Assembly (NCBI RefSeq): GCF_001273845.1
Contig: NZ_JHBW01000065.1
Coordinates: forward strand, 1-64,000
Direction of reading: 5' to 3'
Source of the DNA: Leucobacter musarum subsp. musarum
Lineage (GTDB): Bacteria > Actinomycetota > Actinomycetes > Actinomycetales > Microbacteriaceae
Length of the DNA stretch: 64,000 bases
Position numbers and translations under genes: made by a program
Shown here: positions 11,843 to 19,031 of the stretch, piece after piece
Layout of the letters: each line of letters starts with the position of its first letter
Numbering within the stretch: the stretch's first letter is position 1
The notes under the pieces: generated by a model
The model's input: only the letters and a program-made list of their open reading frames with translations
The model's database searches: none
What the model was told of the DNA's origin: nothing

Positions 11843-14800
11843 TTGAACGACTCACTGCGCGAAGATCCTCAGATCCCGCTGACCCGCGGTGCGCACGCCG
11901 CCCCCGAACGCACACTCATCGACGTGCTGCGCGCGACAGCAGCGGCGTACCCCGAGGCCTCGGCGATCGACGCCGGATCGGGTGCGCTGAGCTACCGTGA
12001 ACTCGTCGCAGCGGTCGATGAGCGTGCCAACGAACTGCGGGCGGCCGGGGTGCAGGTCGGCGATCGCGTCGGTGTGCGTGTGGACTCGGGATCGCAAGAT
12101 CTTTACATCGCGATCCTCGCGATCATGCGCGCGGGGGCGGCGTACGTGCCGGTCGACGCCGACGACACCGATGAGCGGGCCCGCCTGGTATTCGGCGAGG
12201 CCCGAGTGGTGGGCATCGTCGGCAACCACGGCTTCGTGCCGCGCGCGAGTGATGCATCGGCAACTGATGCGCCCGCGGTCATCGAAGCCGAGAGCGAGGT
12301 GCTCACAAGCGAGGCGATTGAGGCCGAGGCAGCCCCCCCTAGTCGACCCGACCCCGGATGATGATGCGTGGATCATCTTCACCTCGGGGTCGACGGGCGT
12401 ACCGAAGGGCGTCGCCGTAACCCACCGATCCGCCGCCGCATTCGCGGATGCCGAGGCGCGCATGTTCTTGCAGCGCGAGCCTCTCGGCCCCGGCGACCGG
12501 GTGCTTGCGGGCCTGTCGGTCGCGTTCGATGCCTCGTGCGAGGAGATGTGGCTCGCGTGGCGGCACGGGGCCTGCCTGGTGCCGGCTCCGCGGGCGATCG
12601 TTCGGGCCGGTGAAGACCTGGCGCAGTGGTTGGTGCGGCAGAGCATCAGCGTCGTGTCGACGGTGCCGACGCTCGCCGCCATGTGGCCGCGAGAGGCGAT
12701 CGAGCACGTGCGCCTGCTGATCTTCGGCGGCGAGGCGTGCCCGCCCGAGCTCGCCGCCCGCCTCGTGGAAGACGGTCGCGAGGTCTGGAACACCTACGGC
12801 CCGACCGAGGCGACGGTGGTGGCCTGCGGGTGCCCGCTCGACGGCGTCTCGCCGATCAGTATCGGTCTGCCGCTCGACGGCTGGGATCTGGCGGTCGTCG
12901 ACGCCGAGGGCCGCCGTGTGGCGCCGGGGGAGTCGGGCGAGCTGATCATCGGCGGCGTCGGCCTCGCGCGGTACCTTGACCCTGCGAAAGACGCGGAGAA
13001 ATACGCGCCGATGCCCGAGCTGGGCTGGGAGCGCGCCTATCGTTCGGGCGACCTGGTGCGGTACGAGCCGACGGGGCTCATGTTTTTGGGCCGTGCCGAT
13101 GACCAGGTGAAGGTGGGCGGTCGACGCATCGAGCTCGGCGAGGTCGAGAACGCGTTGCAGGATTTGCCCGGCGTGACGGCCGCTGCCGCCGCGGTGCGCT
13201 CGAGCGACGCCGGTGTGCCGGTGCTCGTCGGGTACCTGGTCGTCGAGGGGGAGGCACCGCTCGATCGCGCACTCGCCCGTGAGCATCTCGCCGCGCGACT
13301 CGCGGCCGGAGTGATGCCGTTGCTCGCCGTGGTCGACGAACTCCCCATTCGTACCTCGGGCAAGGTCGACCGCGCGGCGCTGCCGTGGCCGTTGCCCGGA
13401 GTCGACGCTCCGGCGGCCGAGGGGCTGAACGCGAGCGAGGCCTGGCTGGCGGAGCAGTGGCAGGCCGTGCTCGGGGTGCCCGTGCCGGGCGCCGACGCCG
13501 ACTTCTTCGATCTGGGCGGCGGCTCGCTGCCCGCCGCGCAGCTCGTCTCGCGCATTCGCACCCGGGTGCCCGAGTTCACCGTGGCCGACATCTACGATGT
13601 GCCACGTCTCGCAGCGATGGCGAAGGCGATCGCGGCGGTCGATGACGCGGGTGATGCGAGCAGCTTCCACCAGCCCGCCCCGACGCCGCGCGGCACGCAG
13701 TGGGCGCAGACGCTGGCCGGTGTGCCGCTGTTCATCGCGAGCGGGTTGCGCTGGCTCGTGTATCTGCTGACGGCGGGCACGATCCTGAATCTCACGACCG
13801 GGTTCGAGGTGCTGCCGAGCGTGCCGATCTGGATGCTGCTCCTCGGCATCCTGGTGCTGTCGACGCCGTTCGGCAAGATGGCGATCGCGGCGATTGTGGC
13901 GCGCGTGCTGCTCGTCGGGGTGCGCGCCGGCGATTACCCGCGCGGCGGCGTGACGCACATGCGCCTGTGGCTTGCGGAGCAGTTCGCGCAGCAGATCGAC
14001 GCGGTTGGGCTCGCGGGTGCGCCCTGGATCACGATCTACGCCCGTGCCCTCGGCGCGCAGATCGCGCGCGATGTCAGCTTGCACACGCTGCCGCCCATCA
14101 CGGGAATGCTCGAGGTCGGCGCGCGCTCGGCCATCGAACCCGAGGTCGACCTCACCGGCTATTGGATCGACGGCGACCTGCTGCGCATCGGCGGTGTGCG
14201 CATCGGCAGCGATGTCACGGTCGGCTCGCGCAGCACGCTTGCGCCGGGCACCCGAATCGATGACGGCGCGGAGATCGCGCCCGGTTCGGCGGTGTTCGGT
14301 CGCGTGAAATCGGAGCAGACCTGGGCAGGATCGCCGGCCGTGCGCATCGGTGGCAATCGAACGGAGGAGTGGCCCGATGGCCAGCCGCATCGCGAGCCCG
14401 TGTGGCGCTTCGCGTACGCGGGGTCGTCGATCGTGCTCGCCCTGCTGCCGTTCGTCTCGTTCGCCGTCGGCGGCCTGCTCATCGCTGCCGGAATGCGCGG
14501 CGCGGAGTCGCTCGGTGCTGCATTCGGTGCGGCACTGCTCTGGTTGGTCCCGGCTGTACTGGTCACCGGTGTCGTCTACGCCGGCGCGGTCGTGCTGTTC
14601 GTACGGCTGCTCGCGATCGGGCTCGACGAGGGCACCTTCCCCGTGCACAGCCGTATCGGCTGGCAGACCTGGACGACGGAGCGCCTGCTCGACGCGGCGC
14701 GCACCTTCCTCTTCCCGCTCTACTCGAGCCTCTTCACGCCGGTGTGGCTGCGCCTGCTCGGCGCCCGCGTCGGCCGCAATGTCGAGGCGTCGACGGTGCT

Positions 14801-15812
14801 GCTGCTCCCGAAGATGACGCGCATCGACGATGGCGCCTTCCTCGCCGACGACACGATGGTGGCGTCGTACCAGTTGCACCGCGGGTGGATGCGGATCGGC
14901 CGCGTGCGCATCGGCAAGCGCGCCTTCCTCGGCAACTCGGGGATGGCCGGCCCAGGGCACCGCGTGCCCAAGGACTCGCTCGTCGCCGTACTCTCGGTCG
15001 CACCCGGCAAGGCGAAGGCTGGCTCCTCGTGGCTCGGTTCGCCACCCGTGCGACTGCGCCGCCTGGCGCAGGACGGGGACGACAGTCGCACCTACCACCC
15101 GGGTGCTGCACTGCGCATCGCACGGGCACTCTGGGAGCTCGGACGCATTCTCGCCGTCTTCGCGACGACCGCGCTCGGCCTCACCGTGCTCTTCGCGTTT
15201 GCGTGGCTCTGGACGTCGGTCGGAGCGGTCTGGACGATCCTGCTCTCGGGACTCGTCATGCTCGCCGCGGGCGCCGTCGCCGCCGGCATCTCGACCGCGG
15301 CCAAGTGGATCATCGTCGGGCCGATCCGGGCCGGCGAAGCGCCCCTGTGGTCGAGCTTCGTCTGGCGCACCGAGGTGAGCGACACGTTCACCGAGATGCT
15401 CGCGTCGCCCTGGTTCGCCCGCGCGGCCGCCGGTACCCCCGCGCTCGCCGTCTGGCTGCGCTCGCTCGGAGCGCGGATCGGCGCGGGTGTGTGGTGCGAA
15501 TCGTACTGGCTGCCGGAACCCGACCTCGTGACACTGGGCGACGGATCCACCGTCAACCGGGGGTGCGTCGTGCAGACCCACCTGTTCCATGATCGAATCA
15601 TGAGCATGGATACCGTCGAACTCGCCGCGGGCGCGACCCTCGGGCCGCACAGCGTCATTCTGCCCGCCGCCGTCATCGGCGCCCACGCGACCGTCGGCCC
15701 CGCATCGCTCGTCATGCGCGGCGAAAGCGTGCCCGTCGGTTCGCGCTGGAGCGGCAACCCCATCGGACCCTGGCGCGCCATCAAACTGCGCGCCTACCAG
15801 TCGACGAAGTAG
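11843..15812 (+). pseudogene. Pls/PosA-family NRPS-like poly(amino acid) synthetase, interrupted by a one-base frameshift
   Basis: The reading frame shifts at a run of seven C (12333-12339). Removing one C rejoins two open frames into about 1322 residues and restores the adenylation core ...DPTPDDDAWIIFTSGSTG. Domains in order: an adenylation domain (GALSYRELVA; TSGSTGVPKGVAVTHRS; FDASCEEMW; NTYGPTEATVV; YRSGDLV; GRADDQVKVGGRRIE); a thiolation domain (FFDLGGGSLPAAQ, near 13500); then transmembrane segments alternating with three related left-handed beta-helix modules, each introduced by a LGARxG-type motif (about 14040, 14755 and 15460). There is no condensation or thioesterase domain. This is the architecture of epsilon-poly-lysine synthetase (Pls). 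The start TTG 11843 is tentative. Inactive as written unless the extra C is a sequencing error or a phase-variable slip. Linked M1 peptidase and phosphopantetheinyl transferase support the call. Confidence 0.85.
12333..12339 (+). other. Seven-C homopolymer causing the NRPS frameshift
   Basis: Seven consecutive C lie in the linker just before adenylation core motif A3. With seven C the upstream frame ends at the TGA at 12359-12361. With six C it reads on into TSGSTGVPKG and the rest of the protein. Sequencing error, slipped-strand phase variation and true mutation all fit; the sequence alone does not separate them. Confidence 0.8.
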
Positions 15813-15839
15813 TCGACGATGCACCTGCGAAAGACCGGC

Positions 15840-17120
15840 ATGAGCGACCCCTACACTCCCACCAGTGGCGACCCGAGATACTCGGTCGCGCACTACGACC
15901 TCGACCTGCGCTACACCCCGCGCACGAACCGGCTCGAAGGCCGCGCCTGCCTGCAGGTGCGCGTGCTTGAGGCCACCGACCAGCTGCGCATCGACCTCAT
16001 CGGGCTCAGCGCGAGCAAGGTTCGCGTCGACGGCGCACTCCAGCGGCAGGCGAAGCAGGGGCCGCACGCGCTGACGATCCGGCTCGACGACCCGGCTGAG
16101 CCCGGTGCCGAACTGCAACTCGACATCGAGTACGCCGGCCGCCCCGCACCCCGGCGATCGCGCTGGGGCCAACTGGGCTGGGAAGAACTCGAACACGGCG
16201 CCCTCGTCGCCTCCCAGCCAACCGGCGCACCCACGTGGTTCCCCTGCAACGACCGCGTCGACGACCGCGCCACCTACGACGTCTCGTTCACCACCGATCG
16301 CGGCTTCTTCGTCGCCATCACAGGTGTGCCCGGCACCGTGACCGGGCGATCCGGCAAAACTCTGCGCACATTCTCGACGACCGTGCCGACCGCTACCTAC
16401 CTGCTCGCCGCACACATCGGCGAATACGCCGAATACCGCCTCGGCGACCGCGCCCGACTCATCGCACCACCCGGACGATCACGCGCCGTGCAGCGCGCCT
16501 TCGCACCCGTGCCGCGCATCATCGACATCTTCGAAGAATGGTTCGGGCCGTACCCGCAAGAAGACCTCACCATCGTCGTCACCGAAGAAGAACTCGAGAT
16601 TCCCCTCGAAGCGCAAGGCATGGCGACATTCGGCCGCAACCACGAAGCCCCCAGCGAGCAACGCCTCATCGCGCATGAACTCGCCCACCAGTGGTTCGGC
16701 AACTCCGTCGGCCTCGCCCGCTGGCAAGACATCTGGCTCAACGAAGGCTTCGCCTGCTACTCCGAATGGATCTGGTCAGAAGCCTCAGGCGGGCCGAGCA
16801 TCGCCGACCTCGCCGAACAGCACCACGCACGACTCGCCGCACTGCCGCAGCACCTCGTGCTCGCCGATCCCGGCCCCGCCGACATGTTCGACGACCGCGT
16901 CTACAAACGCGGTGCCCTCGTGCTCGAAACGCTGCGACGCACCCTCGGCGACGACCTCTTCCGCGCCGTACTGCTGCGCTGGGCCACCGAACGACGCCAC
17001 ACCCTCGTGCGCACCCCTGACTTCATCGCCCTCGTGCAAGAGATGAGCCCCGTGCCGATCGACGGGGTGTTCGACTCCTGGGTGTTTGCTGCGGCGTTGC
17101 CTGCGCTGCCGGATCGGTAG
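15840..17120 (+). CDS. M1 family zinc metallopeptidase (aminopeptidase N-like)
   Basis: 426 residues from ATG 15840 (an in-frame ATG at 15819 adds seven residues; neither has a strong ribosome binding site). Zinc motif HELAHQWFGN with His279, Glu280 and His283, and the third ligand Glu in WLNEGFACYSEW about 19 residues later. An EAQGMATFG segment sits where the GAMEN substrate-binding motif is expected. The N-terminal beta domain begins YSVAHYDLDLRYTPRTNRL. No signal peptide is seen, and it is shorter than full aminopeptidase N because it lacks the C-terminal domain. It follows the Pls-like synthetase by 27 bases. The epsilon-poly-lysine-degrading enzymes of Streptomyces are also M1 peptidases, so it may trim or detoxify the polymer (inference). 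Confidence 0.88.
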   Translation: MSDPYTPTSGDPRYSVAHYDLDLRYTPRTNRLEGRACLQVRVLEATDQLRIDLIGLSASKVRVDGALQRQAKQGPHALTIRLDDPAEPGAELQLDIEYAGRPAPRRSRWGQLGWEELEHGALVASQPTGAPTWFPCNDRVDDRATYDVSFTTDRGFFVAITGVPGTVTGRSGKTLRTFSTTVPTATYLLAAHIGEYAEYRLGDRARLIAPPGRSRAVQRAFAPVPRIIDIFEEWFGPYPQEDLTIVVTEEELEIPLEAQGMATFGRNHEAPSEQRLIAHELAHQWFGNSVGLARWQDIWLNEGFACYSEWIWSEASGGPSIADLAEQHHARLAALPQHLVLADPGPADMFDDRVYKRGALVLETLRRTLGDDLFRAVLLRWATERRHTLVRTPDFIALVQEMSPVPIDGVFDSWVFAAALPALPDR

Positions 17121-17135
17121 GTCTGCTGGGCGTCC

Positions 17136-17238
17136 GCGGGCCCGTGCGCCCTCCGGCGTCGCTCATTGCGTAATCGTCGCGTGCCGCTTCGCACGCTCCT
17201 CTTCCGCAAATGCGACACCGGAAGGCGCACGGGCCCGC
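17136..17238. terminator. Long inverted repeat between convergent genes
   Basis: A 27-base arm at 17136-17162 (GCGGGCCCGTGCGCC...) is repeated in inverted orientation at 17212-17238 with only two mismatches, around a 49-base loop that itself contains a GCGTGC/GCACGC hairpin. It lies between the stop of the M1 peptidase gene (+) and the stop of the phosphopantetheinyl transferase gene (-), so it would fold in both transcripts and probably serves as a bidirectional terminator. No T-run follows. Confidence 0.6.
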
Positions 17239-17298
17239 GTCCGCCCGGCCGCTCGTGTGGGGCGGTGCTCAGCGACTGCCTGGGTGGGCGCTTGTCGG

Positions 17299-17940
17299 TC
17301 AGCGTGTTGGGCGGCGTGGGGTTTGTGCGGCGACGGTGAGGATCGCCCGGGGCATGGGGGACGGGAGCGTCAGGGGCAGGTCTGCGCCGACGAGTCGGGG
17401 CTCCTCGGTGGTGTGCCAGGTGCCTTCGGTGCGAGTCTCGACTACTGGCTCGCGCAGCGACGTGCCCAGCCCCGCGCCCGAGGCCTTCGCGATGGCTTCG
17501 AGGCGGGTCCAGGAGCGGGTATCGGCGTCGGACGGGTGCAGGTCGAGCGCTTCCGCAATGCGGGCGCGCGTGCGGTCGTCGTCGAGCTCGACATCGATCG
17601 CGAAGGCCATGGCCTCGGGCGGGGCGACGCCGACCGCGACGAGGCCTGCGGCGTAGCTGATGCCGATGCGGGGGAGCGCCTGGGCGGGCGAGCTGTGCTC
17701 GCCGACGAGGCGGGCGCTCGGCATGCCGTGCGCGGTGCTGCCGCACGACGGGCACCGGCGCACGAACACGAATGCCTCGGGCGCGATGCCGTGGTGCAGC
17801 TCGTGGAGCAGGCCCGCGAGGAGTTCGTGGGCGATCGCTTGGCGATCCGGCGCGTGCGTGTCATTCGACTCGTCGACGGGATATGCGCGCCACGCGAGGT
17901 GCGCCCCGAGGGGGGTCTCGGTGTGCGCGACGGGTGTCAT
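17299..17940 (-). CDS. 4'-phosphopantetheinyl transferase superfamily protein
   Basis: 213 residues. The features are those of Sfp-type transferases: a zinc-finger-like RCPSCGSTAHGMP segment, ISYAAGLVAVGVA, the magnesium-binding FAIDVE motif (usually GIDVE), and WTRLEAIAKASGAGL (the W-x-x-KEA-x-x-K motif, here with Arg for the first Lys). It would load phosphopantetheine onto the thiolation domain of the neighbouring synthetase; no other carrier protein is visible nearby. Its start overlaps the zapE stop by four bases (ATGA), so it is translated with zapE. Confidence 0.8.
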   Translation of the reverse strand: MTPVAHTETPLGAHLAWRAYPVDESNDTHAPDRQAIAHELLAGLLHELHHGIAPEAFVFVRRCPSCGSTAHGMPSARLVGEHSSPAQALPRIGISYAAGLVAVGVAPPEAMAFAIDVELDDDRTRARIAEALDLHPSDADTRSWTRLEAIAKASGAGLGTSLREPVVETRTEGTWHTTEEPRLVGADLPLTLPSPMPRAILTVAAQTPRRPTR

Positions 17941-19031
17941 TCGCCCAGCAGCGCGAGGCGGCTGACGGTGCGGAAGAGGTCGGCCGGCGGGTCGGCGATA
18001 TCGACGAGCCCGGCCCGGTCGGTACTCGCGAACACCGTCAGCGGCAGGTCGGCGTGCACGAGCACGTCGAGCAGCGCGACGAACCGCTGACGTGCCTCCC
18101 GGCTCGCGCGCGACAGCGGCGGCACGTCGACGAGCACCCAGCGATCGTGCTGCGCGGCGAGGTCGAGGAAGTCTTCGGCGATCGACGACGCCTCGAGCAG
18201 ATCGTCGAAGGCGAACCAGATCTCCGAGGAGGAGGGAGAAGCCGCGGAGTCGATCGGGCGCACCGCGAGCGCGCGCAGGGCGCGGTGCCCATCGAGCACC
18301 TGCGTGGCCTCGGCGGCGGTCGGCGGGGTGAGCTGGGCGGCGCTGACGGCGCTCGCCGCCGGAGTGCCGGTGGGCACCGCGATCCAGCGCCCCGATGCGA
18401 ACCCGGTCGCGGGCCGCGCATCGCCCGCAGCGGAGCCCGCCGTGCGATAGTCGGTGCCGCCGTCGAGGGTGCGCACCGCGAAGTGCTCGCGGATGAGGCG
18501 CACGCTCGGCTCGACGACGTGGTGGAACACCGGGTTCGCGAGCAGCCCCTCGGGGACGTAGTTCGAGGTGAAGAGCGTGGGGATGCGGCGCTCGACGAGC
18601 TCCGCGATGAGCCGGTTGAGCAGGCTCGCCCCGCCCGGATCGTGCACGTGCAGCTCGTCGAAGAAGAACAGTTCGGCGCCGTCAAGCAGTTCGGCGACCG
18701 TGTCATCGATCGCCTCGCGCGCGGTCATCTGCGCGCCGAAGCGGCGCTGCAGCTCCTGGAAGAAGGTGTGGAAGTGCACGCGGCGCTTGGCGGCCTCGGG
18801 CACGTCGACGGCGGTGAAGATCTCGCTCGTGAGCCAGGTCTTGCCGCGACCGGCGGGCCCGTGCACGAAGGCGCCGACGGGCGCTGCGGGATCGGCCCAG
18901 TGCTCGGCGAGCTCCGCGATCTCGGCGAGCAGCTCGCGCTGCGGCGCATCGAGGTCGATGCCGCGAGCGGCGGCGGCGTGCCCCACCCGGTCGGTGAGCT
19001 TCGAGAGCGTGGGTGCGTCGGTTTCGGTCAC
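17937..19031 (-). CDS. zapE: Cell division protein ZapE (AFG1-like ATPase)
   Basis: 364 residues from a GTG start. The AAA-type P-loop is HGPAGRGKTWL near residues 57-67, followed by VHFHTFFQELQRRFG and Walker B LFFFDELHVHDPG, then TLFTSNYVPEGLL (sensor I). The C-terminal part carries FDDLLEASSIAEDFLDLA and ends with RTVSRLALLGE. In E. coli ZapE destabilises FtsZ polymers; AFG1 homologues act in protein quality control. A TAGGAT box (read leftwards, 19045-19040) is eight bases before the GTG, so the mRNA is probably leaderless. Confidence 0.88.
   Translation of the reverse strand: MTETDAPTLSKLTDRVGHAAAARGIDLDAPQRELLAEIAELAEHWADPAAPVGAFVHGPAGRGKTWLTSEIFTAVDVPEAAKRRVHFHTFFQELQRRFGAQMTAREAIDDTVAELLDGAELFFFDELHVHDPGGASLLNRLIAELVERRIPTLFTSNYVPEGLLANPVFHHVVEPSVRLIREHFAVRTLDGGTDYRTAGSAAGDARPATGFASGRWIAVPTGTPAASAVSAAQLTPPTAAEATQVLDGHRALRALAVRPIDSAASPSSSEIWFAFDDLLEASSIAEDFLDLAAQHDRWVLVDVPPLSRASREARQRFVALLDVLVHADLPLTVFASTDRAGLVDIADPPADLFRTVSRLALLGE

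What the first reader, a model, noticed from the sequence alone, without database searches (positions are those of the whole stretch)
11843..17940. Candidate poly(amino acid) synthesis-and-trimming locus inserted in a conserved housekeeping block
A Pls/PosA-like synthetase (adenylation, thiolation, then membrane helices alternating with three beta-helix modules) is followed by a cytosolic M1 zinc peptidase and a phosphopantetheinyl transferase. Epsilon-poly-lysine producers pair Pls with an M1-type polymer-degrading peptidase. Here the carrier-activating enzyme is linked as well, and the whole set splits the xerD-parA order that is conserved in actinobacteria. It could make an isopeptide homopolymer outside the genus Streptomyces.
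Basis: partly seen in the sequence, partly recalled or inferred. Interest (0 to 1): 0.75.

Follow-up and report, generated by a model that had tools for sequence, protein, structure and literature searches.

The report
Polylysine synthetase, peptidase, carrier-activator gene set
The window holds a known kind of gene set for making and trimming the antimicrobial polymer epsilon-polylysine, plus a carrier-activating enzyme gene that usually travels with it in this bacterial family, although the synthetase gene is split by a frame break in this sequence.

Summary
Window 11843-17940 encodes a Pls-type synthetase, an M1 zinc peptidase and an Sfp-type phosphopantetheinyl transferase (PPTase). The synthetase matches TIGR02353 (694 bits, cut-off 423); its best PDB match is Pls (7wew), with an identical ten-residue pocket, DAESIGTVVK, so the predicted product is epsilon-poly-L-lysine.

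The peptidase follows the synthetase in 97 of 97 fetched lysine-type Microbacteriaceae loci; its subfamily was found in 98 of 99 synthetase-positive and 0 of 150 negative genomes. A PPTase lies beside the pair in 85 of 97 loci; PPTases of this type were found in 97 of 99 positive and 9 of 150 negative genomes. The set moves as a unit: 3 of 8 positive genomes of this genus carry it between xerD and parA, next to an AFG1/ZapE-like gene; a close relative has the empty site.

Polylysine synthetases with a neighbouring peptidase are already published for coryneforms, and such clusters for Microbacteriaceae. The linked PPTase is the one part I did not find in print. Verdict: new member of a known kind, with a modest new detail.

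The parts
11843..12361 (+). N-terminal part of the pls-like synthetase (start of the adenylation domain), in its own frame; ends at stop codons
   Evidence: AMP-binding E 1.8e-18
12333..12339 (+). run of seven C at which the synthetase reading frame changes; the only homopolymer of 7 or more in the 64 kb window
12333..15812 (+). rest of the synthetase (second frame, open from 11997): rest of the adenylation domain with pocket DAESIGTVVK, carrier domain, terminal region
13443..13631 (+). thiolation (phosphopantetheine carrier) domain
   Evidence: PF00550 at residues 483-545 of P0003
13704..15764 (+). Pls/PosA terminal domain TIGR02353
   Evidence: 694.5 bits, 697 bits, cut-off 423.1
14055..14345 (+). 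first predicted beta-helix module
   Evidence: AlphaFold2 model, mean pLDDT 82.9; the 21 Foldseek matches at E <= 0.001 are hexapeptide-type acyltransferases or designed proteins on that scaffold
14763..15035 (+). second predicted beta-helix module
15471..15749 (+). third predicted beta-helix module
15819..17120 (+). M1 zinc peptidase, 433 aa, no N-terminal signal sequence seen; HELAH at residue 286, Glu309 and Glu264
   Evidence: PF01433 E 7.4e-26, PF17900 E 2.9e-12; those motif residues identical in 193 of 193 aligned sequences
17299..17940 (-). Sfp-type phosphopantetheinyl transferase, 213 aa, convergent to the operon
   Evidence: model matches PPTases in PDB
17937..19031 (-). AFG1/ZapE-like ATPase beside the set; present alone at the empty site in G258, so not counted as part of the set
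   Evidence: PF03969 171.5 bits

Best explanation
The locus is an epsilon-poly-L-lysine (Pls-type) synthesis-and-trimming gene set of a Microbacteriaceae genome. In its working form, the PPTase loads the phosphopantetheine arm onto the carrier domain; the adenylation domain activates L-lysine and loads it; the membrane-embedded beta-helix region joins lysines through the epsilon-amino group and the chain leaves the cell; the cytosolic-looking M1 peptidase, encoded 6 bases downstream in the same operon, degrades polymer that stays or returns inside, as self-protection. The set has moved as a unit into the gap between xerD and an AFG1/ZapE-like gene in the ancestor of three sampled genomes of this genus. 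In this sequence the synthetase frame is broken at a run of seven C, from a recent slippage mutation or a sequencing error. Shown: domains, pocket identity with Pls, gene linkage, co-occurrence, site comparison, broken frame. Inferred: product, direction of transport, peptidase role, PPTase client.
For: TIGR02353 694.5 bits against a cut-off of 423.1. Adenylation domain: best PDB match 7wew, Pls, 487.6 bits, against 184.9 for 8www. Pocket DAESIGTVVK read from the sequence and identical in the 7wew alignment; the same code in 95 of 100 fetched family loci (2 more differ by one residue, 3 second copies differ), 80 of 80 named loci, 6 of 6 genus loci, and 9 of 12 further loci (the other 3 gave no code). 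Three beta-helix modules between helical blocks. M1 peptidase adjacent in 97 of 97 lysine-type family loci and 80 of 80 named loci, pls-stop to M1-start gap of 30 bases or less in 87 of 97. M1 subfamily in 98 of 99 pls-positive and 0 of 150 pls-negative family genomes. PPTase adjacent in 85 of 97 loci; PPTases of this type in 97 of 99 positive and 9 of 150 negative genomes, Fisher p 1.4e-55 without correction for relatedness. Trio between xerD and the AFG1-like gene in the window, G257 and G250; empty site in G258.
Against: The synthetase frame is broken here. No product was measured. PPTase not found beside the pair in 12 of 97 family loci (some cut by contig ends) and in 43 of 80 named loci, none of those labelled Nocardia, Rhodococcus or Tsukamurella having one. 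The genome has another Sfp-type PPTase on contig C92. Nine pls-negative genomes also carry a PPTase of this type. A published account places PldII outside the cell membrane (passage in PMC9223678), whereas no signal sequence is seen here.
Confidence: 0.82

Rival explanations
1. This copy is a decaying pseudogene: the frame break is a real mutation, the adenylation domain is lost, and the strain makes no polymer.
For: The frame changes at the only homopolymer of 7 or more in the window. Two of 100 other fetched loci (L112, L166) also have broken synthetase frames. Only 8 of 54 genomes of the genus have the synthetase, so gain and loss are common.
Against: Downstream codons are otherwise conserved (dN/dS 0.095-0.157 against four relatives, which mostly reflects the time before any break); peptidase and PPTase are intact. 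A draft assembly in 124 contigs may hold homopolymer errors.
Confidence: 0.4
2. The enzyme makes another cationic homopolymer or an aminoacylated product rather than epsilon-poly-L-lysine.
For: The wider Pls/PosA family makes several polymers (passages of PMC10522769; PMC8117764), and pocket codes do not prove a product.
Against: Pocket identical to Pls, with alanine at the chain-length position that the PosA paper assigns to lysine; the M1 neighbour is the gene context reported for epsilon-polylysine synthetases and not for the other three polymers (PMC8117764).
Confidence: 0.08
3. The PPTase is linked only by position and serves another carrier protein; the carrier of the synthetase is loaded by the genome's second PPTase.
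For: Second Sfp-type PPTase on contig C92; pls loci of Nocardia, Rhodococcus and Tsukamurella lack the linked gene; it is convergent, not in the operon.
Against: Linkage in 85 of 97 loci on either side of the pair, and strong co-occurrence at genome level.
Confidence: 0.15

Closest known systems
epsilon-poly-L-lysine synthetase Pls with PldII (Streptomyces albulus; Corynebacterium variabile)
   Same: Adenylation-thiolation-three-module terminal architecture, identical substrate pocket, peptidase gene directly downstream (PMC8117764, parts 1-2 of 4 read)
   Different: Linked PPTase gene; synthetase frame broken in this sequence; sequence identity of the M1 gene to PldII itself was not tested
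epsilon-poly-L-lysine clusters of Agrococcus, Microbacterium and Leifsonia (PMC12067966, passages seen)
   Same: Same family of bacteria, same synthetase architecture
   Different: The passages seen do not mention a PPTase (0 occurrences of 'phosphopantetheinyl')
PosA, delta-poly-L-ornithine synthetase
   Same: Same overall architecture and family profile
   Different: Pocket DMEHNGTVSK in PosA (passage) against DAESIGTVVK; much weaker adenylation-domain match
M1 metallopeptidase of Deinococcus radiodurans (PDB 6a8z; species recalled)
   Same: Two-domain-sized M1 peptidase aligning over residues 8-432
   Different: No synthetase link known to me; 166.8 bits only
Sfp-type PPTases (PptAb, PptT, Sfp)
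   Different: About 15% identity; convergent neighbour of a Pls operon

Membership tests
Pls/PosA family (TIGR02353) | Score above the curated cut-off of 423.1 bits over the terminal domain | tested here: met
   694.5 bits, positions 2-695 of 695
Pls/PosA family (TIGR02353) | Three beta-helix modules separated by membrane helices | tested here: met
   Predicted model and hydrophobic segments; predicted, not solved
epsilon-poly-L-lysine synthetase (Pls) | Lysine-type adenylation pocket | tested here: met
   DAESIGTVVK, identical to 7wew in the alignment; pocket positions placed from recalled numbering
epsilon-poly-L-lysine synthetase (Pls) | Intact synthetase open frame | tested here: not met
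   Frame changes at 12333-12339; seven positive genus relatives have no stop inside the matched stretch
epsilon-poly-L-lysine synthetase (Pls) | Peptidase gene in an operon with the synthetase | tested here: met
   6-base gap in the window; 97 of 97 fetched lysine-type family loci
epsilon-poly-L-lysine synthetase (Pls) | Makes epsilon-poly-L-lysine | not testable with these tools
   Needs expression and mass spectrometry
PldII epsilon-polylysine-degrading peptidase | Sequence relation to S. albulus PldII and cleavage of epsilon-polylysine | not tested
   PldII sequence not fetched; only gene position compared
M1 zinc peptidase | HExxH-18-E zinc site | tested here: met
   HELAH 286-290 and Glu309, in 193 of 193 aligned sequences
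Sfp-type PPTase | Pfam ACPS above its cut-off | tested here: not met
   20.2 against 25 bits for the window protein; 31 of 38 aligned relatives match at E <= 0.001
Sfp-type PPTase | Metal/CoA-binding acidic residues, W..xE...K motif and two-lobed fold | tested here: met
   Asp116, Trp144, Glu148, Lys152 in 87 of 87, Glu118 in 86 of 87; the seven Foldseek matches at E <= 0.001 are all PPTases

The most novel reading that the evidence does not exclude
In Microbacteriaceae and some other Micrococcales the epsilon-polylysine operon is a self-contained, mobile three-gene module that brings its own dedicated PPTase, because these hosts otherwise seldom carry an Sfp-type PPTase; and in the window strain a C-tract in the adenylation domain acts as an on-off switch of polymer production.
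Probability: 0.12. Interest if true: 0.5.

Novelty: new member of a known kind. Interest (0 to 1): 0.3.

Why it matters
It ties a third gene, a PPTase, to the epsilon-polylysine operon across a bacterial family, which gives a practical lead: expressing coryneform pls genes may need the matching PPTase. One published attempt in Corynebacterium glutamicum gave no product although the enzyme was made (PMC8117764); missing activation is one possible cause among several, and is my inference. It also shows that the synthetase and M1 peptidase are inseparable in this family, which supports a self-protection role for the peptidase.

Tried and rejected
Rejected: chance arrangement (linkage in 97 of 97 and 85 of 97 loci). 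Rejected: a PosA or diaminopropionate/diaminobutyrate type, from the pocket. Considered: an altered exopeptidase motif in the M1 gene that would mark an isopeptidase; by my own reading of the sequence the motif glutamate (Glu264) is kept (193 of 193), so no claim is made. Looked for further conserved neighbours by clustering ORFs around 97 loci: beyond PPTase- and M1-like clusters, the larger ones were frames that look like the antisense of genes, and a mixed transporter cluster in 21 loci; nothing convincing. Single-sequence PPTase search was insensitive (29 of 249 genomes), so an alignment was used. PDB sequence search with the PPTase gave nothing up to E 10. Tree comparison: Pls and M1 path lengths correlate at r 0.77 over 50 sampled loci; the Pls clade holding the genus also holds two loci from outside it (L140, L204), which hints at transfer, and the M1 clade has weak support of 0.158.

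Limits: the genome searches score only the best first-look candidates (up to 12 per genome for the PPTase, 6 for M1), so absences are not absolute. G219 (partial, contig end) was not fetched. Counts treat related species as independent. Pocket positions, the names Sfp, PptT and left-handed beta-helix, and the reading of f5/g91 genomes as Streptomyces-like are recalled.
Full report
What is there. The interval 11843-17940 holds three genes. The synthetase starts at the TTG at 11843 and ends at 15812. The M1 peptidase is 15819-17120. The PPTase is 17940-17299 on the other strand. Upstream are a CTP synthase, a NUDIX gene and xerD; downstream an AFG1/ZapE-like ATPase (19031-17937, minus), then parA, scpA, scpB and a pseudouridine synthase.

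The synthetase. Its pieces match AMP-binding (E 1.8e-18 and 1.9e-48), a carrier domain (E 2.3e-10) and the NCBIfam model TIGR02353, 'Pls/PosA family', at 694.5 bits with a cut-off of 423.1. The best PDB sequence match of the adenylation part is 7wew, the epsilon-poly-L-lysine synthase domain, at 487.6 bits; the ornithine enzyme chain 8www scores 184.9 (8www is identified as PosA by recall). The ten pocket residues, placed by recalled numbering, read DAESIGTVVK, and the 7wew alignment shows the same residues. The terminal 701 residues are predicted (mean pLDDT 82.9) as three beta-helix modules between helical blocks, and the 21 PDB matches at E <= 0.001 are hexapeptide-type acyltransferases or designed proteins on such a scaffold.

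The broken frame. The 11843 frame ends at 12361; the rest is in another frame, open from 11997. The change falls at a run of seven C, 12333-12339, the only homopolymer of seven or more in the window. Seven positive relatives in the genus show no stop inside the matched stretch and open frames of 1311-1395 codons, against 1273 here. Two of 100 other fetched loci also have broken frames (L112, L166). Downstream codons show dN/dS of 0.095-0.157 against four relatives, as expected of a gene broken recently or only in the assembly. I could not decide between these.

The peptidase. PF01433 and PF17900 match. HELAH, Glu309 and Glu264 are identical in 193 of 193 aligned sequences. No signal sequence is apparent in the window protein or in the nine relatives whose starts were printed. 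It follows the synthetase in 97 of 97 fetched lysine-type loci of the family and in 0 of the 3 second copies with another pocket code, and in 80 of 80 named loci within about 2 kb, among them Nocardia, Rhodococcus, Arthrobacter and Kribbella. With an alignment search the subfamily was found at E <= 1e-100 in 98 of 249 family genomes, each of them synthetase-positive; the one positive genome without it, G219, has a partial synthetase match.

The site. Among 54 genomes of the genus 8 have the synthetase, and all 8 have the trio (the window itself). In the window, G257 and G250 it lies between xerD and the AFG1-like gene; G258, with parA 94-95% identical, has xerD, AFG1-like gene and parA without it. 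In the other five no xerD or parA was found in the stretch fetched. G250 has an SSF symporter and an Lrp/AsnC-type regulator in addition. The genus was not named.

Literature. PMC8117764 (parts 1 and 2 of 4 read, plus passages) reports the pls-peptidase operon in Corynebacterium variabile, epsilon-polylysine made by heterologous expression, and homologues in coryneforms including Microbacterium. PMC12067966 (passages) reports epsilon-polylysine clusters in Agrococcus, Microbacterium and Leifsonia. PMC10522769 (passages) describes PosA and pocket rules. PMC9223678 (passages) describes PldII as coupled to pls, self-protective, and outside the membrane; that location differs from what is seen here. 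PMC4361855 (passage) mentions PPTases only as an enriched gene class. I found no mention of a PPTase linked to pls in searches, of which several only gave listings.

Verdict. A real, well-conserved epsilon-polylysine type gene set, with its synthetase broken in this sequence. The kind is known; the linked PPTase and its co-occurrence are the modest new part.

Noticed in passing
L161, L164, L165 (genomes G134, G071, G187): Second Pls/PosA-family copies with another pocket code, DFECLSVVTK, and no M1 neighbour; a PPTase lies within about 10 kb of them. They may make a different polymer.
   Followed up: partly
L112 and L166: Synthetase frames are broken in two other family loci as well.
   Followed up: partly
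window 17937-19031 (-); L286; L297: An AFG1/ZapE-like gene lies between xerD and parA in the window and in relatives with no polylysine set, so it reached this interval independently of the set.
   Followed up: partly
L285:11544-13958: Relative G250 has an SSF-family symporter and an Lrp/AsnC-type regulator between the PPTase and the AFG1-like gene.
   Followed up: no
L337 (G000:C92:161241-161768): A second Sfp-type PPTase elsewhere in the window's own genome, with unknown client.
   Followed up: no
window 12333-12339: The only homopolymer of 7 or more bases in the 64 kb window coincides with the synthetase frame break.
   Followed up: partly
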